This document shows, in pieces, positions 9,665 through 37,743 of a stretch of 64,000 bases of DNA. Source of the stretch: Apostichopus japonicus (Eukaryota > Echinodermata > Holothuroidea > Aspidochirotida > Stichopodidae). Under the pieces are notes generated by a model, which had not been told where the DNA came from, made no database searches, and was given only the letters and a program-made list of their open reading frames with translations. Position 1 is the first letter of the stretch. Every line of letters begins with the position of its first letter. The stretch is taken from contig NC_092579.1 of the NCBI RefSeq assembly GCF_037975245.1, positions 3,992,001-4,056,000 of the forward strand, written 5' to 3'. The position numbers were made by a program, and so were the translations under genes.

Positions 9665-9766
9665 GAAATCTCTGACAAGTCTTGCACATCTTTCGGTTTC
9701 TTTCTCTGTCAGGGCTTTTTCTAATTTTGTGATGTTTGTGAAGAAATCAGTGAATTTTCGGTCGGC
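9665..9766 (-). pseudogene. frameshifted ghost copy of the terminal death-fold exon
   Basis: This segment aligns base for base with 10441-10543 inside the last coding exon of the neighbouring gene. On the minus strand the copy reads TKLEKALTEK...CARLVRDF, against TKLENALTEQ...CAKLVRDF in the intact exon. One base is missing, in the stretch matching ATCTCCCACAAATG, so the upstream part (ENSLISS) falls in another frame. The copy covers only the last third of the domain. It sits 0.7 kb downstream of the true stop codon, which fits a local duplication that decayed. Confidence 0.7.
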
Positions 9767-10395: not shown

Positions 10396-10697
10396 TTATT
10401 CTGGGCACAATGTTGCTTGAACTACAGGATTTTTCCATCTAAAATCTCTGACAAGTTTGGCACAGTCTTCATTTCCTTGTTCTGTTAAGGCATTTTCCAA
10501 TTTTGTGACATTTGTGGGAGATATCAGTGAACTTTTGGTCAGCTTCTCTAACAAAAGAGTTCCTGGCGTTTTGTGCTTCTTGATATCAGTAATTCCTTCT
10601 TCAGGAAGTTGGAAAATATTTGCCAGCAGGGTAGATTGGTCTACATCAAGATGTTCTGATAAGTTCTGCTTTAGCTGATCAAAAGATTTGATGATGG
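10396..10697 (-). CDS. exon 20: C-terminal DED-like death fold and stop
   Basis: The acceptor follows CAACCTTACAG and the exon ends in TAA. Residues 2136-2235. Six-helix death-fold pattern with LLANIFQLPEEGITDIKKH, then TPGTLLLEKL and CAKLVRDF. It corresponds to exon 13 of the first block. Confidence 0.85.
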
Positions 10698-13600
10698 CTG
10701 TAAGGTTGTAAGAGAATGAAATTTCGACTCTACATAAAGTGAATTAAACTAATCCTGTTTTAGGGAAATAATATCCAGAAACGTGAGACAACATAGATGT
10801 GTTTCTTACACTCAGGGGCAAAATAAACCTGAAAGCTCAGAGTTTTCAATGAGACTAAAAAGGAACTCTGATTTAACTCACAGAATACATCTTTAAAGCA
10901 GGTGACTGAATTTCATTAATTGTTGTTTTCCACTGCAATATGACTTGAATACAGTATCAATACTCAGTCTAAGTGTGTTGCTTTGGTATCGAAACTGATG
11001 TTTAAAACCAAAGCAAACACCAATACTTAACATACTTTAGAACTGCAATCCTTTTATATGAGATGTGTACATGTACACTTTTTTCTTACATCAACATTTT
11101 ACATACTGCCGACAATTCCTTACATATGAGATTTGAACACCTGATCCCACTTTGCATAGAGGAGTCCAGGCTGCAGTTGTCATTTCAACTTGTGGACTAT
11201 ATGTAACTATCAGCTATTTGCAATACTTGATATTGAAGAAACTGTTCTAGTTCACAAATCTGGTAGTGAGTACAACATGGTAATGAAACATCTTCAGCTG
11301 CATTAACATGCTAAAATAATTAATTACTCACATTCGGGTAGAATGAGCTGAAATGGAGATGTGATTTGGTCAATGTGTCGTAACTTTTCAATCTGTGAAG
11401 AGGAAACAGAGGAAAGCTTTATGATTGCCCTAGAAAATAAGTTTGTGCATATTTCACCTCTATCAATTAAGAGTATGTCTCCAGAAGCAGTTTAACTAAT
11501 ACTTTAAGATGTGCAAATTAGGACTATTTTCTATACATTTGTGATCTGAAGACAGCTTGTCATAAGATTTTCTTCTGGCATTGTAAAATTATAGTTCAAA
11601 CCTTTATTAATGAAAATCAGTTCATCAACTAAGACCGACAGAGTAGAAAATCAATAGATGATGCCTAAACATATACATAGTGTGGTAAGCCATACATATT
11701 AATATTCATATACTTGTGCACGGCCAAATGAAGAGGATTGTCCATTGACTAATGCTGTAACATAAAAAGGAATGAGTTATCATGTTGAGACAAACTATAA
11801 AAACAGAAAAAACCTCATAAGCATTTATCTATATACTTACATCATATTATCCAAGTACATATGTAAAGCTAATTAGACATACTACTTCAAAGATATCTGA
11901 TTAAGAATTTAATGTTCACTGAATAAAATTCATGATATGCACACAAAAAAAACAGAAAAAACAACACGGTTGATTGTATGAATGTAGTGTGACAAACCTA
12001 ATATGTCAAGTTGGGAAATCATGAAACATTTCGTTCTTGTCATGTGTTAAAACTACTTAAAAGCCATTTCTTGCAATATGTTGAATATTAATGACATGAA
12101 GTTGGAGACATCATGAAAATGTGCTCATTGTGCACCAACATGACCATACCAGTATGAACCAAAGTTCATGTTAAGCCCTGCCCACTCATTACTATTCAAG
12201 AGATGGGAACCAAGAAAAATGGGGCACATCTACTCATCATGGGGCATATATCTCCCAAATATAACATTGATTCAACTTGTGGTTTTTGAGATATCGTATT
12301 TACAAGCTGTTTTTGACAATTTTCCACTCATAAATATTAATGAGGTAACATTGTTGTAGCAAAGAACATGTACATAATATGTAGTTACAGCACCGTACCA
12401 AGTATGAACTAAATCAGACATACTCCTCATATTCAAATCTTTCTTTCTGCTACATTAATTCAAAATCAAGTTACCTGCAACTGAATACTAAGCTGGAAAA
12501 GATTCTTCCTAAACTTCCCATATCTTGCTTCTATTTCCAGATTGAACGTATCTTCGATCCCTTTATACTGAAGATGGAATTCTATCTTGTGTCTGTTCTT
12601 TAACCATATGGTTTCCGTGGCAACATCCTTTGAAAGAGAATAATTAGAAGTTGACATTGAAGTGGTTGAAGTTAATGTGTTAACATTCTAAGGATTACAG
12701 GTTCCAGTCCTGCACAGATGTTTAATCTGTGACCTTGGGCAAGGCACTTATTCCAATCAGCCCCTCTTCACCCAGATGTATACATTTAAACCTACGAGGT
12801 AACTTTCACCGTACTCTGATACCCTCATTGAGTATCATTACAAATTGAGAAGAAAGAGTTTCAATATTACAAATGAAATGTTGATTTGTAATCAATGTAG
12901 TAAAAGAGTTTACAATACAGCAACATATGCTAGCATTATTACATACTACTCAACAGGTGCATAAAACTATTCTTCCAACAAATAGAAATTACCTGTGGAA
13001 CAGGAATTACCTGCTTTCTTTACATGTTGACATAAAATAAATAAGAACATTTGACAGACATTACTAACCACTTTTCTTGGGTTACACTGTGAGGTACTGG
13101 AGTTGGTGCTAACATGTAAAGTTGAAGTCATAGACTTGAGTTGAACAGACACAGGATCATGAATTATGGAACCCTTTTGCTGATAGATTTCTTCATTGAT
13201 AAGGCTCTGTTAAAATAGAAATGAGACAATATTACATTATAATTAATGTATATTTAAACATTACCATAAATGCATACACCCATTGCATTGTCCCATGTAT
13301 GAGCAGGAAGCAATAACAGCTCCCTAGTATGACCCTCTCATTAAAACTGGTGTGGCCTTTAATTGGTAAAACAAGCAGCTACTATAAATATCTGATACAT
13401 GGAGTGCAATAAGGTCTAACTCTCTGTACAGATTTTCTGCCTAATCTCTTGTCTGGCTGATTAACTGGACCAACTAATGTGTTATCAAACACTGAGCTCT
13501 GTTATACAGCACAAGCATGTGACTTGAATCCCCACGTAATGAGGGGAATATAAACTGAAATCAGGGAGCTGTTATTATTATACATTGATTGTCTTCAAGA

Positions 13601-16600
13601 TACATTATCAAAGACCATTCATAGTCTCACGGCTTATGTTCTGAAAAATATAAACTCTTTACTCTAATATTGGACAAGGTGTACGTGTTTACAAATGTGT
13701 CTGTTACAACAATTGTTGTCAGTTGTCAATGACCACAGACCAAAAAATATTGAACATGCAATTTTTGTTTAGGACATCTGGTCAGTGTGTTTTGTCGACT
13801 ACAAGGTTATTTTCGACCATCAATGACCACAGACAGCCTGAACCAGCTAATCTTACATTGAAAAGATTCCACCTTTTGAGTTAAAATGTTGAATTGGAAG
13901 CCACCCGAAGTGTAAGTTGTAATCCATAAGCCCTTGCAGGTTTCTCCCAAATTTGTGGTCACTTAAGTGACGTAAAAATAACTGCTGTTTATTATTATTA
14001 TTAAGTAACTCTGACATCAATTAAGTTTGAATTAAGGCAGATGACTGGAATCTGTGAGATCATTTGCAATACCACTTGAGCTGAAAAAAAATCTACTACT
14101 TACTTTATGTTCCAGTGAGTCATCATTATGAAACCAAAGATGAATTGTCAATTGATCCCCCGATTCAGAAACTCTGTTCACAATTGGTAAGACGCAGACA
14201 CGTTTCAACATCTTGGGTATGAAAGGGACGTGAAGACCAATGAGACATGGTTTCTCAGCTTTAACTGCAAAGTGCTGACTATTCATAGAGCAGCTGAGAT
14301 ATTTCCTTTCTTGGCTCCATTTGATAATTTTATCTGAAGAAGATTTAAAAAACTATTTTGCTAGATAAGTATTTATAACATGGTGAAAGGTAAAACACCA
14401 AGCCTAAAATATACCATAGATGATTTTAAATTGACAGTGTTGTGTTAGAAAATGCAACACTGCTTACAAAGAACATCAAAACAGTACAACATCTTGTTTT
14501 TCACTTAATGTATAATTGCAATGTTGCCAAATAAATTGTGTTGCTAACTACAGCCTGCCATAGCTTGAGGTGCTTTTTCCTCCTTTAATAATCTTGTTTA
14601 TTTATCCCTTAAGGTTGGAACAAATGATTGAGGTCATCAGGTCAATGTACTACTGAGAAGAGAAGGGTTCCTTGAAAAACATGTTGGCTTTGTGATTCCT
14701 TGCCATACAATTTGCTCAAACTTCCACATACCTATCAGACTAAGGTAGAGCAAGTGAGTTAAATTTGTCTATGAACTAAGTGAAAGCCAGGAAAGAAATC
14801 ATGTTATTATATATATATATTATATACATTAGCTTTTATTATGTGTATATTTTCCCTTTTTTCCTACCTATATCAAAGTTTACCAAGCAATAGCAAAAAA
14901 CCACACATTCTCAGCAAAAGTAGGCATTTCATCGGGATATTTGAAGTTTTCTAATACAAAACCTTCAAAACTTAACTATTTTACTACCAAAATCTACTAC
15001 TTTTGGAATTCTGTTTAGAAATTGAAAGTTTAACAGCTGTGTCTGCATGGAATGTAAATGAAATTCATGGAAACTTTTTTGAGTCATTGTGTTAAGAAAT
15101 GTATCAGAGTTTGCCTGCTACATAAAAAGGAGGATACTTGTACATTTTTAATATGGAACCACATACTAAATGTCAATTTACACCATTATGCCCTTGAGGT
15201 CATGGTGTTAATAAGCCAATAGGGGTGACATACAAAAACACACTAACTCATATACACACCTTTGTTGATACAACAAATTTAAGTAACTAAATATAATTAT
15301 CAAAGGAATCAATAAACACAATGCAAAAGAAACAGAAACACACCTGTTTGTAATACACCAGAGTACACATCAAGACCCGTCTGGTCAGCTGGAGTAACAG
15401 CACAGTGTGGAATAATCAAGGTGACAGGCTTGTGTAAGGTAAGGCTCTCAGGACCAAATTTCACAAAAGGGGTCAATCTTAGACTCTTCTTTGAGAAAGG
15501 TTCATTGATGGCAGGTTCAGTAGAAACCCATAGACTAACAATCCTTCCAGTGTGTAGTGCACCAGCTGGTACAAGGAGATTAACACCTGCTATAAACATC
15601 TCTCCTCCACGATGATCAAAGTACTGCTCTTTATAAAGATTGGATCCTGGGAACAAAGGAAGTGTCTCTGGAGGAGAAAAGTAATATATTTCAAGTGAAA
15701 GGAAAGTGATTTTGCCACTTCAATGCTTATTCAATGCATTAACACATTTAATGAAAATAGTCTTTTTAACACAAACTTGTTTCACTTTCTACTTGTAGAA
15801 ACAAAATAATTAAGAATCACAATAAATTTTAATTTTTGACTGAACATCAGATATGAAATAATTGACCTGATTGATGAAAACAGATCTAGAAGAGAATATT
15901 TCGTTGAAAGTAACACGAATTACTTTTATTTCAGGTATCTAGATCATATTCCTATGATGTAGCTATTTTGTGAGTAATTTTCCTAAAATAAATAAAAATA
16001 CTTGTTCTTCCATAAACACTGAAACAGCAAGGGCTTGAAATGTATTCCTAGAGTGTGTTATAACAAGGAGGTAAATTATATCACGTAGAAATATTAAAAG
16101 AAATACCCATGTAGCTAAATACATAGGGTATCTTTACCATGCTCTTCCTTTGCAAGTAGCAATATCCGTCTTCCCAAGTCCAGTTTTCCATTAGACAATT
16201 TCAAGGCTCTTTGGACATCCAGTCTCTTGTAACCCTCTTCTATCAAAATTGTGTAATTTACTGACAATTTTGATTCCCTTTTTGAGATTACTTCCTGTTT
16301 CTTTGGAATTTTTACCTGAAACAATGTTGAAATATTACAATTTGTTTATCAAATCTACATTTTTTTATCATACTTTCATCATGATATTCAACTAATTACT
16401 GCATTTGATTTGGCTTCAGTGAATATTCTACACAGACTTTCTGTACACTTGATCTCTACAAACATAACTTTATGTAAGCAGAAATAATCTAAACCATTCT
16501 AAGATCCTGATGTTATGCAAAGTAACCATTCTTTGGCTTCAAGCTTAAAGTTTCAAAGTCTTGACAAGTTATTGCAAAGCACAAACCATTTTGTTAATTT

Positions 16601-19600
16601 CTTTTCCCCCTTCGTTTTCCTTTCCATTCTTCTCCTGTAACGTATCGATGTACTCCAGCACCATTCTTGCCACCTTGTTAAAGTCAATAGCTTTCAATCC
16701 TTCATACATTCCAATCATTCTGTTTGGCATGATGAGCTCTCTTTCATCCAATATTTTCATCAGCATCTTTCCAGATTTTGCTGCTTCCTGAACTGTATCC
16801 TTTTCTGCTGGCTTCAGATCAAAATACATGCCTAGCTTTGCGCAATGTTGTTTATCCAGAAGCTTTGCAATGTCTCCTCTCAACTTTTCATATTTGTGTA
16901 AGCCTGAAAGTGAGGACATAGCATCCACTTGACATTCGAAGGAATATAACAAAGGCTAGATATCACATGTAGAAATAAGAGCACCTGAAGCACATGCCAA
17001 TGGAGTGGCAGTTATGAACAATGAGCAATGTTCACAGCTTACATGCACAAGTACACAACAGGCCCTCAAGAAGCATGCAACCTGTGTGGAGAACGTTGGT
17101 ATGCAAATCAACCTCTGGTGCATGCACACATTAATTATTGGTTTTATACTGTCCACAACTAGCATACAACTTTTCTACTTTAAGCCCTTGTCTTGTGCAT
17201 AAATTCTGGTCTCATATACAGCTTCACCTTCATGGTTGCTTTGAGCTACCAAGTTGGAAGTGAGCATACTAACTAAAAATGAAAGCGTGCAAATTGAACT
17301 TAGAAATGTTTTGGGTTCAGCAGTATGATTAAATTTCTTGCCATCAAAAATGTTTATGTTGATGAAATATTTCCCAATAAACAATGTTGATATAAGTAAC
17401 ATTTGGTGTCTACTGCTAAAACCAAATGCTATTACCTTTTCACCTCTTCTTAGACACTCACCTGGGTCCATGTACTCTACGTCTGCTTATTTTTTCATCT
17501 TCACTAATACACACTTACCTGGTGTATGTCTACGAATAATAAGCATTCATTTTTCTCTAGCAACTGCACTTAGATGCAGGTCAGGGTGGACATCTAAAAC
17601 TAGCTAAGTCCACCCAATTGTTCCACTTCCACATAAAAACTCACCTGGGTGCAGAATTTTCTGGCTTTCTGGAGATAAGAGAATGTCTTTCACCTAAAGG
17701 AAAACAAAAAAACAAAATTATATGACTAATGAAAACTTTAAATGTAAGAATATTTAACATACAATTATGCAGGCTATCTACCTTACCCCTGTGAATGGTT
17801 AGATTTAAAGTAGGAATGTAATGCAGAAACATATGGCAGTAACAGACATGGAACAACACATAATAAACGTGTGAAATCCAAAAAGAAAAAGGAATGCTGA
17901 TGACACTTATTTATGCAGTATTCATTCATTTATACCTAAGATACCCCACAAAACAAAGTTACTTAGCAGAGAAATGAGCAGATGGGAGAAGATGCCGCTT
18001 AATATTATGTAATGAAGAGACATATGAGAAGACAAATAGGTCAACAGATATAACTCACCTTCGATTGGAGGATAAGGGCTGTCTGGTTCATTTCATGTTG
18101 TGTTACTTTTAACTTCACATCAACCATGTCAGTGTCTCCATCTTTGTCCCTTGTAAGTCTAAACTGATGAGAAACTCTACTGGCAGCACAGAGGTAATCA
18201 ATGTCTACATGCTAATGGATAAAAGATAATGAAATCAATGTACTTTGGATGCATAGAATGATTGTTAAGTATTTAAAGAAAAGGTGCCACATATAAGAAG
18301 TAAGAATTAAGGAAAAGCTGGTAAGGAACCAAGACATGTGGTCATGTACAAATCCTCACATTTCATGGGCAGCTGGTGAAGATTATACTTTCCTATTATA
18401 TTAAGAATTCCATGACATAATTTAGGTTTAGATCATTACCAGGGGTAGCAACTCTACAGAAACATATTCGAGTCATAGGTATTCATGTCATTCTGGATAA
18501 ACACAGACTTATATTTATCAATTTCTGTTTGATGAGTGTTTAGAGATTTTCTAGGCAGACATGTAATTGTCTCAATCGTTCACGCTCTCAGGACAGCCAC
18601 TTAATCAAAATCCCAATCCAAGAACTGAGAGTGTGCCACAATAACTGAACACTGCCTCAGATACAAATGGAGGTGAATTATATACACCAAAAGTAAAGCC
18701 ACGGTGAATGGAGCTATTCGCAATACCGTACGAAAGAACATAGGACCAAACTTAACTTCCTTATAAATTCACAACCCAGGAATACCAACTCACACAAGAT
18801 CCTGCTCAGCAACACTGCACAGCAGAAGGTTGCCTATATTGTGGTTCCTGCTGGGATATTGAACCAGAAACCACATAGTTGTAGGGCGACACTCTAACTG
18901 TTACACAATTTAATCCACTTCAAGTAACCAATCCTTAACTACAAGTCTTGTAATGTTAAAAGAAAAACTTTAATAGCATTGGCAATTACAAACCTTTGTT
19001 GATTCTTCCTTTGTTAGATGGTAACCATCACCAGGTGATGACATGATCAGATCAATGTAAGAAACATGGTCTCTGACGTCATTCAATGTCCGGGTAATTT
19101 GAAATGTTGTATAGTTTCCTAGACACAGTTTGGGATGGTGGTCCTCTAACAGCAACTAAACCATAAGAACAAGAAGATTTAAATTGCAAAGAAACACACA
19201 GAGAGTTGATTATACAATTTGTTGTGCCTTCACTCTGTACAGAGAGATCAATACTGCTATAGCAAGTAACATCGTCTTTGTTTCCATTATTTGCTCACAT
19301 TACCAACGTTGCTTGTTTCTTCGGATCCTCCCACCCTCTTAATCCTTGTTGTGAGCCACAATAAAAATTTGGGCCATCTGCATATTTTGGAGGTGAACCA
19401 CATATTTTGTAAGAAAATGAAATTTTAACCGAAGAAATAAATAATAATGTTAGTAAAATACCATGATCCATTCTCTATGAGACTATCAGCATTCTTCCTT
19501 TATGACTATGGGGATACTGTCAGTTTCATTTCAGTACAAATACTTTTGATAGAAACATGTTTTAAGTTAACGTCAAGTTTACATTTTTTCATTTATAATT

Positions 19601-25600: not shown

Positions 25601-28600
25601 TGTGATATGTCTAGAGTTTCACGTTCTCCAAGCAATGTTTCATCCTCTATAACAGAAGCGGAGTAAGCCTGCAAATAAACAAAACAAGAAAGATATGTTA
25701 CTTGGTGTACTGACACATTAATGAAATAACCTCAGTTTTCATGTCTGTCACCTGTCAAGTTACACCAATTCAGTCTTTAGCTGATAAAAGCAACTGATTT
25801 TAGTATAGGTGAATGTACTCATTACTCACTTCACACTATTTGTAATCAAATGTAGCTTGACTTTGATCATTTTTTTGAACTCCTTGAACTATTTCTGTAA
25901 AGCTCAAGATTATGTTGTTACTTGTAACACCTTTAACAGTGGAGCCTTCGATCATAAATTCAACACAGTAATGGTCTCGTCACAATATTTTGACACTTCT
26001 TTTGCTACTAATGATATACTGGCTACAGATACACACTGTTCTATATTCATAATTCACTTACTATATACTTAATCATATTTACCAATTGTTGCTGATTCAA
26101 GGCTTCCCTAGTCTGCTTCAGGACCTCTTGTAAAGCCATGGATTCTTTGGCATATTCCAGTTGAGACTTCACAAGTTCATCTTTTGTAGCTCTCAGACTT
26201 GATTTAGCTTCTTCATGCTCCTGTCGTGTAAACAACACAGTAAATGAGACAAGAAGGATGCACCTCCCAGTAGTTACTTGCAAAAAATTACAGTTTATAC
26301 CAACATTGAAGTTGCCAGTGTCTGAAGGGAAACATTTTTCAAGTAGACACATTTCTTCACACTTATTTTTAGGCAGGCTGCAATGATAACCTTTTGACCT
26401 TTACTTGAGGGTGTGACTATTGCAAAATGACTACCTTGCTCAGAGAAAATCACATGTTCACAACAGTTTAGTGCTGAAAATTGTGACCTAACCTTCACAC
26501 AAAAAAACTTCCAGGAACTGTGGAACTACTGTTCTAGAAAAAGGAATGTTAGGCCTATCACATTGAAGGACAGACGATCAATTATATCAATTAATTACAT
26601 TTTTCAATGTCTTAAGCTTGTTTTCAGTTGTATTCAATCCATCTCTGAAGTATTGTCTTTCTTCCTCTGTTGTCTTTAGTCTTCCAGTCAGCCGTTGTCT
26701 TTCCTCCTCTGATTTCTTCAGTCTTCCAGTCAGCTGTTGTCTTTCTTCCTCTGTTGCCTTCAGTGCATCTTTGAATTGCTGTCTTTCCTGCTCTGTTGTC
26801 TTAAGTCTTGCACTCAGCTGTTCTCTTTCCTCCTCTGTTGTCTTTAGTCTTGCACTCAGCTGTTGTCTGTCCTCCTCTGATGTCTTTAGTCTTCCAGTCA
26901 GCTGTTGTCGTTCCTCCTCTGGTTTCTTTAGTCTTCCAGTCAGCTGTTGTCTTTCCTCATCTGTTGTCTTTAGTCTTCCAGTGAGCTGTTGTTTGTTTTC
27001 CTCTGTTGCCTTCAGTGCATCTTTGAATTGATGTCTTTCCTGCTCTGTTGTCTTAAGTCTTGCATTCAGCTGTTCTCTTTCCTCCTCTGTTGTCTTTAGT
27101 CTTCCAGTCAGCTGTTGTCTGTCCTCCTCTGATGTCTTTAGTCTTCCAGTCAGCTGTTGTCTTTCCTCCTCTGTTGTCTTTAGTCTTCCAGTCAGCTGTT
27201 GTCCTTCTTCCTCTGTTGCCTTCAATGCATCTTTGAACTGCTGTCTTTCCTCCTCTGTTGTCTTTAGTCTTCTAGTCAGCTGTTGTCTTTCTTCCTCTGT
27301 TGCCTTCAATGCATCTTTGAATTGTTGTCTTTCCTCTTCTGTTGTCTTCAGTCTTCCAGTAAGCTGTTGTCTTTCTTCCTCTGTTGCCTTCAATGTATCT
27401 TTGAATTGTTGTCTTTCCTCCTCTGTTGTCTTCAGTCTTCCAGTCAGCTGTTGTCCTTCTTCCTCTGTTGCCTTCAATGTATCTTTGAATTGTTGTCTTT
27501 CCTCCTCTGTTGTCTTCAGTCTTCCAGTCAGCTGTTGCCTTTCCTCCTCTGTTGTCTTTAGTCTTCCAGTCAGCTGTTGTCTGTCCTCCTCTGATGTCTT
27601 TAGTCTTCCAGTCAGCTGTTGTCTTTCCTCCTCTGTTGTCTTTAGTCTTCCAGTCAGCTGTTGTCCTTCTTCCTCTGTTGCCTTCAATGCATCTTTGAAC
27701 TGCTGTCTTTCCTCCTCTGTTGTCTTTAGTCTTCTAGTCAGCTGTTGTCTTTCTTCCTCTGTTGCCTTCAATGCATCTTTGAATTGTTGTCTTTCCTCTT
27801 CTGTTGTCTTCAGTCTTCCAGTAAGCTGTTGTCTTTCTTCCTCTGTTGCCTTCAATGTATCTTTGAATTGTTGTCTTTCCTCCTCTGTTGTCTTCAGTCT
27901 TCCAGTCAGCTGTTGTCTTTCTTCCTCTGTTGCCTTCAGTGCATCTTTGAATTGTTGTCTTTCCTCCTCTGTTGTCTTTAGTCTTCCAGTCAGCTGTTGT
28001 CTTTCCTCCTCTGTTGTCTTAAGTCTTCGAATCAGCTGTTGTCTTTCTTCCTCTGTTGCCTTCAATGTATATTTGAATTGTTGTCTTTCCTCCTCTGTTG
28101 TCTTCAGTCTTCCAGTCAGCTGTTGTCTTTCTTCCTCTGTTGCCTTCAATGTATCTTTAAATTGCTGTCTTTCCTCCTCTGTTTTCTTTAGTCTTCCAGT
28201 CAGCTGTTGTCTTTCTTCCTCTGTTGCCTTCAATGTATCTTTGAATTGTTGTCTTTCCTCCTCTGTTGTCTTTAGTCTTCCAGTCAGCTGTTGTCTTTCT
28301 TCGTCTGTTGCCTTCAGTGCATCTTTGAATTGTTGTCTTTCCTCCTCTGTTGTCATTAGTCTTCCAGTCAGCTGTTGTCTTTCTTCCTCTGTTGCCTTCA
28401 ATGCATCTTTGAATTGTTGTCTTTCCTCCTCTGTTGTCTTTAGTCTTCCAGTCAGCTGTTGTCTTTCCTCCTCTGTTGTCTTAAGTCTTCCAATCAGCTG
28501 TTGTCTTTCTTCCTGTGTTGCCTTCACTGTATCTTTCAATTGTTGTCTTTCCTCCTCTGTTGTCTTCAGTCTTCCAGTCAGCTGTTGTTTTTCATCTTCT

Positions 28601-31600
28601 GATTCAATTAATTTGTGAGAGAGTTCCTGCCTTTTGCCTTCTAATGCCTGTAGTTGATCCTTTAGTTCTTTCTTGGTAAACTTTGAATCTGAAACAAACA
28701 TATACTGTAAGATGCAAATATGGATAAAGATCGTCTTCCACCCAAGAGATATATTTATGTAAATAAACTCAGTTCAATATATCATAATTTATGCAGTAAA
28801 AACTTCCAGGAAAATATTGTGACAAACTTGCCATAACTTAGTGAGTTCCCATTTGGGTCCAACTTTAGCATGTTATTTGAGGTGACCATGCAAATCTCTC
28901 ACAAGGTGTTGACTTTGGCCCTGCTTCTGAGCAATTGAACAAAGTCATGACAAGCCCCTTTAATGAGTCTTATGTATCAAGGATATTAAATTACAAAATT
29001 TCAAAAGGAGAGGAAATTCCAAATTTTACCAATCTTGTCTGATATACCTCAAATGGAAACTTTTGAGTATATCCCATTAGTTACAGTCTTATAGAAATAT
29101 TTGACTTTAATGTAAGACCTTGACATTGAATGAACAAGTTTTCTTGCCAACTTATTTATCAGATTATTTGTATCAAACGGTGGTATTAATGGAGAATCCT
29201 TCTTCTATCAACCATGGGTTAATTAACTTAAGTTAATACAGTACAATGGTATTACCTCAAATCGCATTTGTTGACTTTGTAGGGCAACACATTTGCATGT
29301 TTTGCGATTCATAACATATTTAACTTGTTAAGCTCTGTGATATAAACATACCTTGAGCTTGTTGGAAGACAGTCAATACTGCGACCAATTTACTCAGTCC
29401 TTTTTCAGAGCATGCTGTCATTAAATAGTTGATATCATCAAAAGAAACCTTCCCTGCCTCTCTGAGATGGTGGACAAGAGATGAAAAGGGTGTGTCACTC
29501 TTAATAATGTCCTTTGATTCCTTAGCTGGAACTTTAAGGTAGTCAAGTAGCTTCTGACAGTCATCTTTCTCAATCAATGACTCTGTGTGGATCAGGCAGT
29601 TATCAAAGGTAAAGATGTCACTCTGTAACAAAAAGACAACGAAAAGAAAATCAAATAAATATACTGGTTGTAGCAGACTATAAAATAGGTTGAGGCATTG
29701 AAACAGCACACATTCAAAGGGAGGGATTAATTTTAATATGAAGGTGTGAATTCTGTGCTGTGATTCACCTTAGTCCCTTCAACTACAATATTACATATTT
29801 ATTTGAGATAAATTAAAAGAACTTAATAGTGGAGAATTGGTTTGATTGATTTTTAGGACTATGCATTCTTTTATACATGAAGCTGTATCAGGCAGATTAT
29901 TGTAGATTGAATCTTGATGCCACCACCTTATAATTACTGTATATATAGTTTAATTGCCTTAACATTTTATTCTCCAAATTTAACCAATAAACACTACATT
30001 GTTACCCATGTTTCTGTGTGAAAGTAATCTTTGACTTAGAACTACTTAAAGTGTCTTTAATTCTGGGCAATGTAGGTGGTCAATAATACAGCTAAACTAC
30101 ATGTGGTGCAGCTCAAATGCTTGAAGAATCAAAGTCCATATGCATTGCACTGTGAAGTATTTTCAAGATTGGTGTATATACACTCAATCATACAGTGCAG
30201 AGCTACTACACTATGAGCTACAGTATACACAGCTTCATGACAAAGAATTCATGTGAAACATTTAATTATTGTGATATGTGCAGTTATCAACTAAAATGCT
30301 ATTGAACCAAGTCTCCTGGGTTACTTTGAGGTTAGACATAATTTAGTAGTTTATGGTGTGGCCAAAATGACATGTAAAAACAAGAGCATAAGGGCACTGT
30401 GGTCCCTTGCGTAGGCATATATGACATAATATTATCATAGCAAGATGGGGCTCAAATAGTCCAAGTAATTGTGGTCCTACATGTACCCATTAAGTAACCA
30501 ACACTATAGCCAACACTTTTGTGATCACAAATTGTGATCGGATTTTTGATTGGAAGGCACTTTTGAGATCTGAATATGGCGTTGAAAATGTAAGAAGATA
30601 AGGTCACCTACAAGCAGGTCAACAGATATGATAACATTGGTGACCTCAGATCACATGACTGTTAAGTTTGAAAATGTTCCACCACCCCATTCACAACTTG
30701 TCCCAAAATAGCAATCAGTGTCAGACCTTGGCAATGGGAGTTAATTGCATTAAATGTCTAAACATTAATTTTGAACTTGTATAACTTCACAAAGGTCACC
30801 CGGGGTCAACCCATTGACATTTTTGATCGATGAGACCTAAATAGAGCATCAAAACTGTAGAAATTCAAACATTTTTCTTTGCCCATTTTCTCCCCCCAAA
30901 ATACTATATATTTTTTTATTAATTGACCTTTGGTGTCCTTGAATCACATGACCGTTAAGTTTGAAAACATTCCTCTATACCATTTGCAATTTGTCCCAAA
31001 ATATCAACCTTGTCACACCTTGGCACTGGGAGTTATTGCATTAAATGTCTGAAAATTAACTTTGACCTTCTATAACTTTACACACTAAGGTCACCCAGGT
31101 GTCAACCCATTGACATTTTTGATCGAAAGGTACCTTTGATATCCAAATCTAGCATCAAAACCAAACATTTTCTTTTTCGCCCGTTTTCTCCCAAACTAAG
31201 CACATTTTTTCTAATTAATGTGACCTTTGGACCTTGGTCTCAAATGAAGTTTGATCTCCTGATTCCAAATATCAACACGACAAGTCTGTACAGCCATCCT
31301 AACTTTGACACCATATAAATTCGCACACAAAGGTCACACAGGGGTCAACCTATAGATATTTATAATCGGAAGGTACCTTTGACATCTGAAAATAGCATCA
31401 AAACTATTAAAATCCCCAAAACACTTAAAGGTCACCAGAAGTCAAATTGAGGTCAAAGGTCACCCAGATGTGGGTCGACAATTGGATTACATTGAAGCAA
31501 CTCCCAACCCTACGGACAATTCGTTATAAAGTTATTGCAAATATACTTGTTTCTTAACATTAATTGACCTTTGGTGACATGACCATTTAATTTCAAAATG

Positions 31601-34600
31601 TTTTCCTAACCAATTCACAACTTGTCCCAAAGTATTAACCTTTTCGCACATTGGCACTGGGAGTTATTGCAGTTCTAGTATTTTGGGTTTTTGGACCATA
31701 ACTGACCTTTGTGGGCACCAAAAACAACAGGGTTCATCTACTCACTATGGTCCACCCACACACCAGGTTTGATCATGATCAGTCAATCCCTTGTTGAGTT
31801 ATCTTGCATACAAGCTAAAGCGTCACACACACACACACCCATGTTTGTGTTTCATTCAGACCGAGGACCCCATTGTATTTTCCATTTTTCAAATCCATGT
31901 ACCGTAACATTAACAATACCCCATACAATAGAATTCTTCCGAGGACGTGGTGATTCTTTAGAAATCACAACCGAGGACCTGAAATTCTTTTGTTCAAGTC
32001 CTCGGTCAGATAGCAAAACAAACGCACACACGCACACACGCATCCATGCAAACCTGAATACATAGGTTCCTTTGCTTTAAGCAAGGAACCATAAAGCCTT
32101 TTACAGGAAGACCATTATTCTTACAGTAACACTGGTTGACATGTGGTAATGCTTTCTCATGCATGGGTAGCAATGATTAGGGAGTTCGTAACAACTCCCT
32201 GAAATGATCATGTTAAATCCATGTGCATAGCTATTGCATACATTACACTGTGTGCTTGGTGACAGATAATGAGTGGGAATCTTTACCACAGTTAATTAGT
32301 GTATTGGGTATTAAGACAATTAAGCAGGATACTGTGTATCATCATTTACACACAGTAATGTCTATTTCGTTACTGTCACAAACTTGACAGAAATACACTG
32401 CAGTAATACATTACTTTCTAAGTTTTTCAAACACAGAAATCAACATAATTTTCAAAACAGTTAATGTTTTGCCTCATTTCTCCTGCTTATTCCCATATCA
32501 CCTACATTATGAGTGTAGTACAGCTAAATTGTACCTACTTAGCATTGTCAGGAATTAATCCAAAATCTGTTACTTATTGTTTCTTATAAAGACTATACAC
32601 TGTGCATTCTTCATATTTATGGAAATCACAAGGCCATCAGTGAAATTAACCACTTGAAGAGAACTGACAAGAAGACTGTCAACTGACTCAATGCAATCCC
32701 TATTAAAGTAAAGCCTGTACTTAGCTACAACTTTCTCTCCTCAGAAGTAATGAAAAATGATTTCAATAGCTTTGTGAATTTTGCAGCCTTTACTCTGTTG
32801 ACAATGTAAAAATAGTACAGTAAGGCTAAGGTCACATTTTCCCTTCTTTTTCTGCTTTTTTGACTAATTTGGACCAAAACAAACCACCCCTACATCCCAA
32901 AACAGAAGCAAGCTTGTGTTATACCATTTTATCAAGACTTAAATACTGTGATCAAATCAAGGTATCACCACTGCAGTATGTGCACTAGTGCAAAACTAAG
33001 CACTATGGCCTTAAATTAAGATAAAACATATTGCCCTTAAATTTTCTTGAATTTTACCTCATTGCAAGGAAAATTGCACCTGTTGTATACTTAACAATAG
33101 TTTGCATTGATTTTTGTCAAATTTGAATATTTTAGCAGACTTTGACAGCCAAAATTAATGAAAAAGGAACTACACTTTTTTAGTCTGAGCTGTTTCGCCA
33201 TGAACCATTCATCTTGCATCAATTTGCAAAGAAGTTTTGACCTAGAATACAAATCATTACCTAAAACATAGCACTTATTTTTATTTGATTTTTTCCAGCA
33301 CTTGAGTGCAACAAGCTTCCAATGGCCTAAATCTTTTATAAAATATTGTGCTAACTTTTCCACCATTTTGATCTCCCTCTTAACGAACAAGTAATAGTTG
33401 TGTTCTTAATAAAATTCTGCATTCACTAAACCAAATTTGTAGAAATTACCAGCTCTTAAGCTCAAAAAAATAAGAAGAAATATTTTCAAAAGTTTGTGTG
33501 TTGCTCTATTATTGGAAAGTGCTACAAGCTACCAATGGCCTAATATTTTCATAAAAATTTGCCCTTACTTTTCCACCATTTTGATCTCCCTCTTAACAAA
33601 CAAGTATTTAGTTGTGTTTTTAATAAAATTCTGCATTCACTAGTACCAAATTTTTATAGCATTAGCAGCTTGTTAGCTCAGAAAATAAGAAGAAAATTTT
33701 TCCAAAATGTGTGTGTTGCTCTAATACTGGAAAGTGCAACAAGCATCCAATGGCCTAAACTTTTCATAAAATTTTGCCCTTACTTTTCCACCAATTTGAT
33801 CTCCCTCTTAACAAACAAGTAATAGTTGTGTTCTTAATAAAATTCCGCATTCACTATTACCAAATTTGTAGAAATTAGCAGCTTGTAAGCTCAGAAAATA
33901 AGAAGAAATATTTTCCAAGTTTTGTGTGCTGTTCTAATATTGGAAAGTCCTACAAGCTACCAATAGCCTATTTAAAAAAAAAAAAATTTCTCTAAATTTT
34001 CCACCATTTTGATCTCCCTCTTAACAAACAAGTAATAGTTGTGTTCTTAATAAAATTCTGCATTCACTAGTACCAAATTTTTATAAATTAGCAGCTCGTT
34101 AGCTCAGAAAATAAGAAGAAATATTTTCCAAATTTTGTGTGTTGCTCTAATATTATAAAGTGCTACAAGCTACCAATGGCCTAAACTTTTCATAAAATTT
34201 TGCGCTTACTTTTCCACCATTTTGATCTCCCTTTGAACAAACAAGTAAAAGTTGTGTTCTTAATAAAATTCCGCATTCACTAGAAACAGTTTTGTCTACA
34301 TTTGAAGCTCGAAGACTGAGAAAATAAGGAAAACCAATTTTACTTTAACATTGACAGAACAAATCACTTCCATGACAACCTTACCAAAACCAACATATCC
34401 CAAGGAAAAAAATGTCCTTATTTTTCTTTAAATTTTGCAAGGTAGATCTCTAAACATCTAAAAGTGTCTTCTTCACACTTGTTCGCATTGAATGAAACCA
34501 AATTTGTTGATCTTCATTCAAAGGATTGTTTGAACAAAAGTGATAAAAAGTCCTAATTTTTACCAAAGGCCTATATATCCTGTATTAGTACTTACTGTGT

Positions 34601-37600
34601 GATATTCATAGACTTTTCCAGTTGTCTGGGTCACCAAAAACAATCTGTTTATGTTATTATTGATCCTGATTCTCATGAAATTATCAGGAACTTTAAGAGA
34701 AGCCAAGATATGACCCCCAGAAATGGACGAATGACCCCCAGAGATGGAAGAATGACCCCCAGATAAAGAGTAAACAACAACTTGTCTACCCTCACCACCA
34801 AGCCATAATATAAATATTAATCCTTTCTCTTCACTGACTGCTATACTATGGGCATATCTGTACTGTTTGTGTGTATATTTCTGTTCTATTTCTCCCTCAC
34901 TATTATACATTAAAGCTCTCCTACCATTGAATGTACAGATAAACAGTTTATCATTACTAACTGCTATATCAATGGGACAGTCTAATCCTACTAATCCTGT
35001 TAAGGTGATTGTCTTCTTTATTCTCAATTCTCTCGAATCTAAGACAATCACCTCATTGGAATCTAAACCGACATAGACTAAACCATCTCTGGTTGTCATA
35101 CACCAGGCGTTATCGTTAAACTTCCCTTGATTGACCAGACCGCCATTACTACTATCGTACAACGCTATCGTATTCTTCGTCGTCGTTAAAAACAGACGAT
35201 CATCCAGTAAGCAAACAGTCCGCCATGATGAACCAAACTCGGTAAATTCCTCAGAATAATAAGGTTCTGACGTCAATAATAACGGTTTTTCTGGAGAATC
35301 AGGATCAAATTGTAACATAAACAGATCGATAAAGCTGCAGTTTGTATTGTCATTATATCCAGCGACAGCCAAACGGCCTGTGTCTAGCACGTCCACCTCC
35401 GACACCTTGTAACCGTCTTGTACAGTGAATCGTGGTATCGTTGTATACACTCTGTGTGTGTGGAAGGCAAAAAGTGTAAAGTTAGGTCAAGGTTGGAAGG
35501 TTGTATCCATGGTAACGAAGAATTTAGAGTGAATTTTGATCGAAGGAATGATGAACAACATATCTCAGACTGCGAAGTAGCCTAGGCAGATCTTGCAAAC
35601 GGTACTGAATTAATTTATGCATGGAATTACAATGTTGTGACCACATTGGAAGATGTCCAGAAAAAATTAATTCAAGAAAGCTAACTTTGTTTGTGAAAGG
35701 CTCAGGTAATCATTGAATGATGGCGCTATTCAAGAAAGCCAACTTTGGTCTAAAGTTTTCACGGGGTAACTTCAGAGAGAAATTTAGTCTTGAGTTCTTT
35801 GACATATTAAGTCCAAGAAAAACAAAGGACAAAGTTGACTGCTAGTAATAATGTTTTCTATAGCTACGCAGCTTTCCACTTATATTAACCTCCTGACCTT
35901 ATACTTACCTTCAAAATATGCTTAAACTCTGGAATGCTCGGGTCTAGAGATCGATGCATCGGCGCCTCAATGCGATCCTAAGTCTTTATGTTAATCCATT
36001 GCTTAGAAATTCTAATAACTCCACCAAAACATGTTCTTTTATCTGCCTAGAAGCAAAACACATCCTTGGATGACGTTTAACACCTTTTTACACGACAAAT
36101 TTGCAATGCATCTTAATATATTGCATTGGAGGCAATAAAAGTCTTCACAGTGAATCTTGTGTTGTATCAGAGAAACTAATCTAACGGTATTTGTATGAGA
36201 CTAAATACGGTCCAGTCACTTCAAAGTGATGAACTTCATTTGTATAAAGGACCATTGCTTTAAAATGAAAATTGTTATAGACTTCCAACATGGGCTGATA
36301 GCAGAGTATTTTAAAAGTCTACAAAACCTTAGGTTTATTTTGCATTTAAAGTAACCCTTTATGTCTACCAGGTTAAGCTTTGACATTGTGTCATATCCAT
36401 GGGCGATTGACCCGATGCGGGGAATCCGAGGATTCAAGTTCCTCCTGTTTTGTAACAGAAACGGTAAGAAGTGCCCCGTTTCGTAGATTAGAAGTGCCAA
36501 TTTTTGACAAGTTCCGTTCTTTGTTATTCTTTGTTATTCTTTGTTATTTAAAACGAGTCATTTCGTTTAGACATTTAGGAAAAGTGTAATCAAGAAGTGC
36601 CTTTTTTGCTGATAAATTGAACTAATCAATTGAACGGTCCTATATCGTTGAAAATAATGGAAATAATGGAATTCGTGGCATAGAATGCAGAAAGGAATTT
36701 ATTTTATTGGCGTTTTGAGATGGCTTTGTACTTTACCTTCTCAATTCAACGCCACCGTGATGTCCTACCAATCTTAGGAGTTTTTTACCACGCCCATCCC
36801 ACCCCTACCCCACCCCTTCGTCACTGAACCCTTTCCTCTATTTCAAAAGTTATCTGAGGAACGATCAGCCCGGTTTGTGAAAGATTTTCAGTATTCAGCA
36901 TTGCTTGTATATAGATGAATGTAAAATAAACAAATAATAAATATTTTTCTTATACTGTCATGTATAATCGCCTGGTATAAACACATTTGAATCTTTTATA
37001 AAACAAGAAAACAATAGTAAATCTTACGAGGTTTTTGTGGCGGCCATTTTGAAATGTGCTTAATTAGTTCTGAGAAATTATTTTTATGCAGCGGGAGTCC
37101 TGATCTGCGGATAAAATTAGAAAAGTCTTAAGAAACAAATACTACTTTCTAAAATATATTCTTATCGAGGAATATAGAAAAAAAAACAGAGATCAGTGGA
37201 ACGGAAAGAAGACTTCTTTTGGGTGAATGCTGTGGCCTTTATGATCCTTAATCAACAATCTTGCACTTAATGATGTGTGAAATGATGTTTTTGGTCATCA
37301 AGAAAGGTTCCCTGGACATACTCTTTAATTTCAGCTATCTTTAGTTCATGCTGGATTGAGAAAAAGACGACGAAATCGTGACAAAATAGTTTAAATTTCG
37401 TAAAATTAATGAATTGATATATACGATGGTGAAAAGAGGAAATTTTGTTTAAAGAAATTGATATTTTATTTAAACTGTCCCGTATAAGCATGTTGTACAA
37501 TTGAGATATACTTCCCTATACTGGAATGCTGCTAATAAAAATTCATAAATGTTTTCTTTTTACTTACAATAATAGACGTCTCTGTAAGATAGGTGCAGGT

Positions 37601-37743
37601 GAGGAACAGATAATATTCTTCAATAGGTCTTGAATATAACCTTGTTCTTGATATAATTCGATTTTCTTATGCTGAGTTGTTGGCAAGTCAACAATGTGTG
37701 AAGTGATAACACAAATTTCAAACAGATGGCCCTTTGAGATCAT
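10396..37743 (-). CDS. propeller / DED / coiled-coil / (ZU5-UPA-DED)x2 scaffold protein
   Basis: Twenty coding exons with GT-AG borders join in one unbroken frame of 6,708 nt (2,235 aa). By residue: 1-58 N-terminal segment; 59-344 six-bladed beta-propeller; about 350-432 DED-like death fold; 436-1177 coiled coil of 14-residue repeats; 1207-1290 DED-like; 1373-1460 ZU5; 1472-1652 UPA; 1669-1760 DED-like; about 1795-1830 UBA-like; 1848-1935 ZU5; 1942-2115 UPA; 2137-2215 DED-like; stop at 10396-10398. Known relatives of the ZU5-UPA-death-fold block are PIDD1, UNC5, ankyrins and the FIIND of NLRP1/CARD8, which signal through death-fold assembly. A cytosolic immune or cell-death scaffold is inferred: there is no signal peptide or transmembrane segment. 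I know no named orthologue. The weakest joins are exon 1-2 and 2-3, which span larger introns but keep phase exactly. Confidence 0.82.
11332..11392 (-). CDS. exon 19: linker before last death fold
   Basis: 61 nt, 20 codons plus one base (IEKLRHIDQITSPFQLILPE). Donor T|GTGAGT. It is the counterpart of the 49-nt exon 12, with the same phases. Confidence 0.8.
12475..12627 (-). CDS. exon 18: second UPA domain, last part
   Basis: 153 nt, phase 0 at both ends, beginning DVATETIWLKNR and ending in FQLSIQLQ. Exon 11 of the first block is also exactly 153 nt, also phase 0/0, and ends in a similar KLKVTQ-type strand. Confidence 0.85.
12695..12810 (+). mobile_element. tRNA-derived SINE remnant
   Basis: A B-box-like GGTTCCAGTCC (about 12700-12710) is followed by GACCTTGGGCAAGGCACTTA (12731-12750), a phrase shared by many metazoan tRNA SINEs. 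It lies in the intron between exons 17 and 18. Confidence 0.6.
13069..13206 (-). CDS. exon 17: second UPA domain, middle part
   Basis: 138 nt, 46 codons, phase 0/0, beginning SLINEEIYQQKG. The donor is the weaker GTG|GTTAGT; it is chosen because it keeps phase with exon 18. Confidence 0.75.
13859..14000 (+). mobile_element. 5'-truncated SINE with (ATT)n tail
   Basis: This matches the 3' half of the SINE at 57029-57145 (shared TTGAATTGGAAGCCA, GTAAGTTGTAATCCA and CAGGTTTCTCCCAAA-type blocks) and ends in an ATT tail. The tRNA-like head is absent. Confidence 0.7.
14104..14333 (-). CDS. exon 16: start of second UPA domain
   Basis: 230 nt, residues 1942-2018. It contains SQHFAVKAEKPCLIG. The H1962-F1963-A1964 tripeptide sits where FIIND/PIDD proteins have their HF-S or SF-S self-cleavage site, but Ala replaces the nucleophilic Ser. 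It is the counterpart of the 227-nt exon 9. Confidence 0.85.
15344..15667 (-). CDS. exon 15: second ZU5 domain
   Basis: 324 nt, residues 1834-1941. Canonical ZU5 features: RGGEMFIAGVNLLVPAGAL, then KFGPESLTLHKPVTLIIPHC. Phase 1 at both ends, as in exon 8. Confidence 0.92.
16138..16315 (-). CDS. exon 14: UBA-like segment
   Basis: 178 nt, residues 1775-1833. ILIEEGYKRLDVQRALKLSN followed by GKLDLGRRILLL fits the three-helix UBA pattern (LxExGY, then DVxRAL, then a final LL). Ubiquitin binding is inferred and was not tested. It has no counterpart in the first block. Confidence 0.72.
16587..16903 (-). CDS. exon 13: third DED-like death fold
   Basis: 317 nt, residues 1669-1774. YEKLRGDIAKLLDKQHCAKL, then GKMLMKILDERELIMPNRMI and ARMVLEYIDTL form a six-helix death-fold pattern. 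A Lys/Glu-rich tail follows. The donor is ATG|GTTTGT, slightly off consensus but in phase. Confidence 0.82.
17645..17693 (-). CDS. exon 12: linker before third death fold
   Basis: 49 nt, 16 codons plus one base (VKDILLSPESQKILHP). Clean borders AG|GTGAAAG and CCAG|GTGAG. Confidence 0.8.
18059..18211 (-). CDS. exon 11: first UPA domain, last part
   Basis: 153 nt, phase 0/0, residues 1602-1652, beginning HVDIDYLCAASRVSHQFRL. It has the same length and phase as exon 18. Confidence 0.87.
18805..18910 (-). mobile_element. tRNA-derived SINE remnant
   Basis: On the minus strand, GGTTCAATATCC (18854-18865) resembles a B box, and a GTTAGAGTG-type A-box region lies about 30 bp upstream. It lies in the intron between exons 10 and 11. 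Confidence 0.45.
18994..19155 (-). CDS. exon 10: first UPA domain, middle part
   Basis: 162 nt, 54 codons, phase 0/0, residues 1548-1601, beginning LLLEDHHPKLCLGNYTTFQI. It is the counterpart of exon 17. Confidence 0.85.
19820..20046 (-). CDS. exon 9: start of first UPA domain
   Basis: 227 nt, residues 1472-1547. It begins GEVTWTEEKSFDWKLDPEKI. S1481-F1482-D1483 lies at the position of the FIIND self-cleavage site, with Asp instead of Ser after Phe. It ends in DVLITVCFCKDSDEEYK. Confidence 0.87.
20234..20707 (-). CDS. exon 8: acidic linker and first ZU5 domain
   Basis: 474 nt, residues 1314-1471. A Ser/Asp/Glu-rich linker of about 55 residues precedes ZU5: YEGGTISIMGVHLTIPEGAL, then LINLEPEGLTLDKPAQLTIP. 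The linker explains why this exon is 150 nt longer than exon 15. Confidence 0.92.
21107..21430 (-). CDS. exon 7: second DED-like death fold
   Basis: 324 nt, residues 1206-1313. KLATLFRLPPAETDMLRRVS, then TPGITLINFMKTRNIINMYD and LNRTNEY give the same helix pattern as exons 3, 13 and 20. The PxE and TPG positions match exon 20 closely. Confidence 0.82.
21681..21697. repeat. (GT)n microsatellite
   Basis: Short GT run in intron 6. A second GT-rich tract lies at 21872-21898. Confidence 0.85.
23839..24197. repeat. about 59-bp minisatellite with three-unit higher-order period
   Basis: Six units each carry GTTTGTATTA(GATA)GTGAT(C/T)ACATGACTA. Three variants (ending GGGGTATG, GGGATATAT and GGTGTTTG) alternate in fixed order twice, giving a higher-order period near 176 bp. 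Confidence 0.85.
25584..25668 (-). CDS. exon 6: linker after coiled coil
   Basis: 85 nt, residues 1178-1205, beginning AYSASVIEDETLLGERETLD. It joins the coiled coil to the second death fold. Borders are TTGCAG|GCT and GCAG|GTAGGT. Confidence 0.82.
26083..26220 (-). CDS. exon 5: end of coiled coil
   Basis: 138 nt, phase 0/0, residues 1132-1177. EHEEAKSSLRATKDELVKSQ continues the helix but without the 14-residue repeat sequence. Confidence 0.85.
26599..28688 (-). CDS. exon 4: giant 14-residue-repeat coiled coil
   Basis: 2,090 nt, residues 435-1131. Preceded by KKELKDQLQALEGKRQELSH, the exon encodes about 46-47 repeats of TEEERQQLTGRLKT alternating with TEEERQQFKD(A/T)LKA, so the basic DNA unit is 42 bp and the common pair is 84 bp. 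It ends in TENKLKTLKN at donor GTAATT. Each 14-mer equals two heptads. Such a rod would be roughly 100 nm if continuous (inferred from 0.15 nm per residue). The long plus-strand frames here are antisense shadows of the repeat. Confidence 0.92.
26650..28590. repeat. coding 42/84-bp tandem repeat array
   Basis: The tandem array inside exon 4 keeps frame throughout. About 462 bp (11 x 42) at 27180-27641 recurs almost unchanged at 27642-28103, so the array last expanded by block duplication. Confidence 0.9.
29352..29622 (-). CDS. exon 3: first DED-like death fold
   Basis: 271 nt, residues 345-434. LIEKDDCQKLLDYLKVPAKE, then FSSLVHHLREAGKVSFDDIN and KLVAVLTVFQQ match the DED pattern (hLxxLxxxGKVSxDDhxxL). 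Borders are TTACAG|AGTG and CAAG|GTATGT. It joins exon 4 in phase 1. Confidence 0.87.
30600..31690. repeat. imperfect tandem/dispersed repeat, about 310-bp period
   Basis: Phrases like GATCACATGACCGTTAAGTTTGAAAA, CACAACTTGTCCCAAAATA and GGCACTGGGAGTTATTGCA recur near 30,650, 30,950 and 31,600. A diverged copy lies at 8,215-8,370. Confidence 0.7.
33300..34310. repeat. 214-bp satellite, about 5 units
   Basis: TTTTCCACCATTTTGATCTC recurs at about 33356, 33570, 33784, 33999 and 34212, with the surrounding sequence conserved. The array lies wholly inside intron 2. Confidence 0.88.
34596..35451 (-). CDS. exon 2: six-bladed beta-propeller
   Basis: 856 nt, residues 59-344. Six blade-like repeats: GRLAVAGYND, DRLFLTTTKNTIALYD, DGLVYVGLDSNEVIVLD, DKLFICTFNGRRALMY, KGLIFILWLGGEGRQVVVY and NRLFLVTQTTGKVYEY. 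This suggests an NHL/YWTD-like ligand or partner-binding propeller. Before the last blade, SGGHSSIS is repeated in tandem (24-bp unit at about 34706-34765). The donor CACACA|GTAAGT joins exon 3 in phase 0. If it is not used, the frame continues 11 codons to a TAA at 34560-34562, giving a propeller-only product. Confidence 0.85.
35452..37567. other. intron 1 (2.1 kb)
   Basis: No coding exon needed: exons 1 and 2 join in phase 2 (TT|A). A short minus-strand frame around 37,310-37,345 (HELKIAEIKE, acceptor-like AATCCAG before it, GTATGT after it) could be an optional small exon. It is not required and is not included. Confidence 0.45.
37568..37743 (-). CDS. exon 1: N-terminal segment
   Basis: 176 nt, residues 1-58. 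The ATG at 37743-37741 is the first ATG after the TATA box and is preceded by an in-frame TAA. IELYQEQGYIQDLLKNIICS looks helical, and RRLLL follows. The strong donor ATTATT|GTAAGTA fits exon 2 exactly in phase. Confidence 0.72.

What the first reader, a model, noticed from the sequence alone, without database searches (positions are those of the whole stretch)
10396..37743. A 2,235-residue scaffold combining propeller, four death folds, a giant coiled coil and two ZU5-UPA modules
Twenty exons read by eye join without a single phase error into one frame. I know PIDD1 (LRR-ZU5-ZU5-UPA-DD), UNC5 (ZU5-UPA-DD) and NLRP1/CARD8 (FIIND-CARD), but no described protein with a propeller sensor, an oligomerising rod and duplicated ZU5-UPA-DED blocks. 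It is a strong candidate for an undescribed innate-immune or cell-death signalling platform; the function is inference.
Basis: partly seen in the sequence, partly recalled or inferred. Interest (0 to 1): 0.88.

Follow-up and report, generated by a model that had tools for sequence, protein, structure and literature searches.

The report
Sea cucumber propeller–DED–coil–ZU5 giant scaffold
A sea cucumber gene really does encode one giant protein that joins a sensor-like propeller, a long helical rod and two ZU5-UPA modules with four death-effector-type folds, and it belongs to a large tandem gene family that databases partly label as netrin (nerve-guidance) receptors.

Summary
Confirmed, with corrections. 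The 20-exon minus-strand chain joins in phase. RefSeq's Apostichopus japonicus P0047 (2,235 aa) is identical over residues 1-1208; its remaining C-terminus matches the next tandem copy, about 46 kb downstream. Four head-to-tail copies repeat the exon order (rod exon not compared). The same order occurs in Holothuria leucospilota. Folds: six-bladed propeller nearest Brat-NHL; DEDs nearest PEA-15 and caspase-8; ZU5-UPA nearest UNC5B; a CBL-like UBA. The genome shows about 52 ZU5-exon loci. NACHT-bearing relatives and a fast-changing propeller favour an innate-immune or cell-death scaffold; that is inference. Neither ZU5-UPA junction keeps a complete autocleavage motif. At least 17 of 72 relatives are named UNC5, but the 5 of them scanned lack Ig, TSP1 and Death hits. 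A 2017 paper gave a 234-gene 'netrin receptor' expansion a neural explanation; at least some proteins so named appear to be this family.

The parts
37028..37047 (-). likely main first coding exon, MAATKTS, joins exon 2 in phase
   Evidence: 17 of 27 other relatives with the TIPRF motif begin MAxxxTS; exon and surroundings conserved in all 4 tandem copies
   Evidence: 100% in P0047; frameshift in copy 2, GT lost in copy 3, open in copy 4
34596..35451 (-). exon 2: six-bladed NHL-like beta-propeller
   Evidence: AlphaFold pLDDT 88.0, pTM 0.88, 24 strands; best PDB match Brat NHL, E 3.7e-12
29352..29622 (-). exon 3: DED-like fold a
   Evidence: Pfam DED E 0.031, below cut-off; profile match to DEDd, probability 71, but 1.6 to DEDb
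26599..28688 (-). exon 4: 697-aa helical rod of about 14-aa (42-bp) repeats
   Evidence: tandem repeats; rod about 71-893 aa in full-order relatives
26083..26220 (-). exon 5: end of rod
   Evidence: 71-98% identical in A. japonicus paralogs where it is found, P0047 100%
25584..25668 (-). exon 6: linker
   Evidence: phase and copies; only partly aligned in copy 2
21107..21430 (-). exon 7: DED-like fold b, the most conserved module
   Evidence: profile match to DEDc, probability 89; 96-97% in copies 2-4; mean identity 90.8% among 21 A. japonicus proteins
20234..20707 (-). exon 8: ZU5 a
   Evidence: Pfam ZU5 E 3.8e-9; end as in P0047
19820..20046 (-). exon 9: start of UPA a; junction motif ILS
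18994..19155 (-). exon 10: UPA a
18059..18211 (-). exon 11: UPA a
17645..17693 (-). exon 12: UPA a end
16587..16903 (-). exon 13: DED c
16138..16315 (-). exon 14: UBA-like
   Evidence: family profile matches CBL UBA 2d9s, E 0.0029
15344..15667 (-). exon 15: ZU5 b
   Evidence: Pfam ZU5 E 7.9e-14; UNC5B 3g5b E 4.3e-6
14104..14333 (-). exon 16: UPA b start; junction motif HFA
13069..13206 (-). exon 17: UPA b
12475..12627 (-). exon 18: UPA b
   Evidence: donor not kept in copy 3
11332..11392 (-). exon 19: UPA b end
10396..10697 (-). exon 20: DED d and stop

Best explanation
It is one gene of a holothurian multigene family of cytosolic death-fold scaffolds. Proposed working: the NHL-like propeller binds a ligand; the variable-length helical rod spaces or pairs the molecules; the ZU5-UPA modules clamp neighbouring DEDs in a closed form, as in UNC5B (that closed form is recalled), without cutting themselves; ligand binding or clustering frees the DEDs, which nucleate a DED assembly that recruits caspase-8/FADD-like partners, possibly tuned by ubiquitin through the UBA. 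Shown: gene structure, domains, family, tandem expansion, constraint on the C-terminal half, faster propeller change, no complete autocleavage motif. Inferred: ligand, location, the switch, DED partners, and an immune or cell-death output.
For: Exon chain in phase, matched by P0047 over residues 1-1208 and by 4 tandem copies. Full order in 26 of 72 relatives, 22 A. japonicus (isoforms included) and 4 H. leucospilota. Fold matches to ZU5-UPA and DED structures and the Brat NHL propeller. NACHT joined to this family's modules in P0055, P0066 and P0037; Death in P0055, P0028 and P0032. Separate expansion in two holothurians. Propeller dN/dS 0.72-1.18 against 0.36-0.44 for exons 7-20 in the same copies. 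Highest 19-residue hydropathy of the window protein 1.33. Junction motif: the Phe position is Leu or Met in 61 of 63 readable UPAa rows; the catalytic Ser position is never Ser in 47 of 47 UPAb rows.
Confidence: 0.55

Rival explanations
1. It is a netrin receptor (UNC5) family member, expanded for neural reasons, as published for a 234-gene 'netrin receptor' family in A. japonicus.
For: UniRef or NCBI name at least 17 of 72 relatives 'Netrin receptor UNC5' or UNC5-like (names are cut in the tables); ZU5-UPA closest to UNC5B; the claim in PMC5638244 (passages).
Against: No Ig, TSP1 or Death hit at E up to 0.01 in the 5 such proteins scanned, and none in the precomputed Pfam lists of the 17; the window protein has no transmembrane-like stretch; the N-terminus is a propeller.
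Confidence: 0.04
2. A structural or trafficking scaffold (ankyrin-like), not an immune or death sensor.
For: Long rod; ankyrin ZU5-UPA among the best fold matches; non-cleaving junction motifs.
Against: Tandem birth and decay, NACHT and Death fusions and rapid propeller change are unusual for a structural scaffold; inference.
Confidence: 0.25
3. Two neighbouring genes (propeller; ZU5-DED) wrongly joined.
For: About 5-kb intron between exons 2 and 3; the exon 2 frame runs into a stop if its donor is ignored.
Against: Exon 3 has no ATG in its first two thirds and needs an upstream exon; same order in 4 tandem copies and in another species.
Confidence: 0.04
4. A FIIND-like autoproteolytic sensor such as NLRP1, CARD8 or PIDD1.
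For: ZU5-UPA fold match to CARD8 and NLRP1 FIIND; a relative, P0028, has HFS plus a Death domain in its second module.
Against: Window motifs are ILS and HFA; Phe and the second Ser are needed in CARD8/NLRP1 (PMC3210808, passages).
Confidence: 0.08

Closest known systems
UNC5 netrin receptors (UNC5B cytoplasmic domain, 3g5b)
   Same: ZU5-UPA with a death-superfamily fold; Leu at the cleavage-Phe position in block a
   Different: no Ig, TSP1 or transmembrane part found; DED-type folds; two ZU5-UPA modules; propeller and rod added
PIDD1
   Same: ZU5, UPA and a death fold in one signalling platform (recalled)
   Different: LRRs instead of propeller (recalled); here whole ZU5-UPA-DED blocks are repeated and no HFS is intact
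NLRP1 and CARD8 (FIIND-CARD)
   Same: ZU5-UPA fold
   Different: no NACHT in this gene, no intact SFS motif, last fold DED-type
Ankyrins (ZU5-ZU5-UPA-DD)
   Same: ZU5-UPA fold
   Different: no ankyrin-repeat hit in the Pfam scans; DED-type folds
Brat/TRIM-NHL propellers
   Same: six-bladed NHL-like fold
   Different: no RING or B-box in the gene model; identity to Brat 13-14%
DED/TRADD-N expansions of marine invertebrates (PMC8195603, passages)
   Same: lineage-specific expansions pairing DEDs with propellers (amphioxus) and, in the DEDD2 clade, fusions to FIIND and UPA-ZU5
   Different: built on a TRADD-N domain with WD40 propellers; no double ZU5-UPA-DED block with NHL-like propeller seen in the passages; TRADD-N was not specifically sought here

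Membership tests
UNC5 netrin receptor | ZU5-UPA module | tested here: met
UNC5 netrin receptor | extracellular Ig and TSP1 domains | tested here: not met
   no such Pfam hit in the three stretches scanned or in 5 UNC5-named relatives
UNC5 netrin receptor | transmembrane helix | tested here: not met
   highest 19-residue hydropathy 1.33 in the window model; hydropathy scan only. Among 21 proteins scanned, others peak at 1.2-1.9, P0035 at 2.39 and P0040 at 2.14
UNC5 netrin receptor | C-terminal Death domain | tested here: inconclusive
   no Pfam Death hit up to E 5; fold rows for a close paralog are DEDs, but Pfam also misses DED here
PIDD1 | LRR N-terminus | tested here: not met
   N-terminus is a propeller
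PIDD1 | HFS autocleavage motif | tested here: not met
   ILS and HFA in the window
FIIND proteins (NLRP1/CARD8) | ZU5-UPA with cleavable SFS/HFS | tested here: not met
   motif needs from PMC3210808; by sequence only
FIIND proteins (NLRP1/CARD8) | C-terminal CARD | tested here: inconclusive
   no Pfam CARD hit; last fold matches DED
DED proteins | six-helix DED fold | tested here: met
DED proteins | Pfam DED above curated cut-off | tested here: not met
   13.7-15 bits against 35.9 for exons 3, 13, 20; none for exon 7
NHL/TRIM-NHL | six-bladed NHL propeller | tested here: met
   Pfam NHL 19.3 bits, just under its cut-off of 20
NHL/TRIM-NHL | RING and B-box | tested here: not met
   none in residues 1-494; a further upstream exon was not sought
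NLR | NACHT in this gene | tested here: not met
   seen in relatives P0055, P0066, P0037
DED/TRADD-N proteins | TRADD-N domain | not tested
   only general Pfam scans were run

The most novel reading that the evidence does not exclude
Tandem copies may be spliced to each other, so that one copy's propeller-rod half is joined to a neighbour's ZU5-UPA-DED half. RefSeq isoform X1 (P0047) takes residues 1-1205 from the window copy and its C-terminus from copy 2, whose own propeller is frame-shifted. At another cluster, P0034, P0038 and P0054 (isoforms X5, X6, X2) share an identical propeller but carry two C-terminal cassettes about 88% alike. This would be a combinatorial repertoire of sensor and output halves in an animal without adaptive immunity. 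Against it: P0034's rod also shares exact stretches of 125-234 residues with P0050, so mis-joined gene models or gene conversion are plausible.
Probability: 0.2. Interest if true: 0.85.

Novelty: new variant of a known kind. Interest (0 to 1): 0.62.

Why it matters
It defines a class of ZU5-UPA-DED scaffolds with a sensor-like propeller that none of the papers searched describes, with about 52 ZU5-exon loci in one sea cucumber and a separate expansion in another. It also casts doubt on a published reading: the A. [quoted passage not shown] How many of the 234 belong to this family I could not test.

Tried and rejected
Pfam alone: finds only ZU5 above cut-off; DED and NHL stay below and UPA is missed, so fold and profile comparisons were needed. 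Exon 11: an automatic start at 18179 broke the phase; reading the sequence gave 18211, in phase. A second C-terminal cassette inside the window: none found; it lies about 46 kb downstream. A relative outside Holothuroidea: none among the hits of three protein searches, which need shared words and limited lengths and in 17 and 39 scored only the 7,987 candidates sharing most words, so absence elsewhere is not shown. Genome-wide propeller census: not obtained; that each of the 52 ZU5 loci has a propeller was checked only for the four copies on C19. Papers naming this family: none in searches of an open-licence library; PMC5638244, PMC3210808, PMC8195603, PMC13228809 and PMC11925454 were seen as passages only, other papers as listings; supplements could not be read. 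The rod as a certain coiled coil: not supported beyond half-filled a/d positions. The transmembrane-like stretch of P0040 resembles the window's exon 15 read into its intron; that of P0035 was not followed.
Full report
Observation. The minus-strand chain was rebuilt from raw sequence. P0047 (NCBI, A. japonicus, 2,235 aa, isoform X1, cluster of 15) is identical to the model over residues 1-1208 and then differs at scattered positions. The genome search placed the window at C19:3992001-4056000 of a 671.6-Mb assembly. C19 is 32,433,329 bases long, the length given for P0047's contig, so I take the window to be from A. japonicus.

Tandem copies. C19 from 3842001 to 4106000 (plus the window) holds four head-to-tail copies with the same exon order; the repetitive rod exon was not compared. 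AG..GT is kept at exons 2-19 in the three other copies except e6 in copy 2, e18 in copy 3 and e8 in copy 4; exon 20 keeps its AG. Pooled dN/dS of exons 2-20 without the rod is 0.47, 0.46 and 0.53. Copy 2's propeller is frame-shifted; copy 4 has a stop in the propeller and a frameshift in ZU5 a. Of the pieces printed (98% identity or more), those of P0047's C-terminus lie in copy 2, with one shared by copy 3, and those of P0045 and P0030 in copy 4, apart from one short exon that several copies share.

First exon. Of 27 relatives other than P0047 that contain TIPRF, 17 begin MAxxxTS. The window has that exon at 37047-37028; it and its surroundings are conserved in all four copies and identical over 80 bp in copy 4. 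I take the 20-nt exon as the main start, giving about 2,183 aa.

Family. Of 72 database proteins from three searches, 26 carry all eight core modules scored (propeller, DEDb, ZU5a, UPAa, DEDc, ZU5b, UPAb, DEDd): 22 A. japonicus and 4 H. leucospilota. Some are isoforms and some propellers (P0003, P0013, P0057) are partial. The rod is about 71 to 893 aa. One search lists 119 matches, a lower bound; by hand I count 54 rows close to exon 8, which are 52 loci as two are split, and 48 rows of the ZU5b kind, all on contigs C11, C15, C16, C19 and C23, and 17 other rows. Only the four C19 copies were checked for the other exons. A midpoint-rooted tree of ZU5-UPA-DED blocks of 330-520 aa (41 and 33 A. 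japonicus with the window, 16 and 8 H. leucospilota) separates block a (support 0.997) from block b (1.0), and in each block the species separate (supports 0.846 to 1.0). So the block duplicated before the species split and each lineage expanded on its own. The two blocks share exon phases, as expected of a duplicated six-exon unit.

Mechanism. CARD8/NLRP1 cleavage needs the second Ser and a buried Phe; UNC5B has Leu there (PMC3210808, passages). UPAa has Leu or Met at the Phe position in 61 of 63 readable rows (10 more were gapped; one of the two Phe rows, P0042, is a doubtful alignment) and mostly keeps Ser or Thr; UPAb has Ala, Glu, Val, Asp or Gln at the Ser position in 47 of 47 rows. I predict no self-cleavage and a clamp-type switch. 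P0028's second module has HFS and a Death domain, P0032's NFS, and P0055 has RFS with NACHT. Propeller dN/dS is 0.88, 0.72 and 1.18 against copies 2, 3 and 4; exons 7-20 give 0.36, 0.43 and 0.44. This fits a changing sensor on a conserved output, but decay of copies 2 and 4 contributes, and among 21 A. japonicus proteins DEDa and DEDc vary as much as the propeller.

The UNC5 name. By UniRef or NCBI at least 7 A. japonicus and 10 H. leucospilota relatives are called Netrin receptor UNC5 or UNC5-like. The 5 H. leucospilota ones scanned have no Ig, TSP1 or Death hit. Hydropathy of 21 proteins: window 1.33; others 1.2-1.9, often inside ZU5 b; only P0035 (2.39) and P0040 (2.14) higher. The 2017 genome paper reports 234 netrin-receptor genes and a neural explanation (PMC5638244, passages). 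The members seen here do not fit it; its gene list was not available to me.

Limits. No expression data; only two holothurians among the hits; functional steps are inference. PMC8195603 already reports UPA-ZU5 fusions among marine DED/TRADD-N proteins (passages), so the kind is known even if this architecture is not. Cross-copy splicing rests on NCBI gene models alone and could be a mis-join between near-identical exons.

Noticed in passing
window 9641-9739 (-): A decayed extra piece of the last DED exon lies downstream of the stop; a like piece follows exon 20 in the other three copies.
   Followed up: partly
window 27032-28618 (+): A 528-aa open frame runs antisense through the rod exon, probably a by-product of its repeats.
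   Followed up: no
window 33305-34328: Tandem array of about 213-bp units in the intron after exon 2.
   Followed up: no
   Followed up: no
P0034, P0038, P0054: Annotated isoforms X5, X6, X2 share an identical propeller but have two different C-terminal cassettes; P0034's rod partly equals that of P0050.
   Followed up: partly
P0055, P0066, P0037: Relatives that join family modules to a NACHT domain; P0055 is propeller, DED-like folds, NACHT, ZU5, Death.
   Followed up: partly
P0028: Second ZU5 module has an HFS motif and a Death domain, unlike the usual DED block.
   Followed up: partly
window 54900-55577 (+): Exon of a lysine-methyltransferase-like gene (Methyltransf_16) on the other strand.
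   Followed up: no
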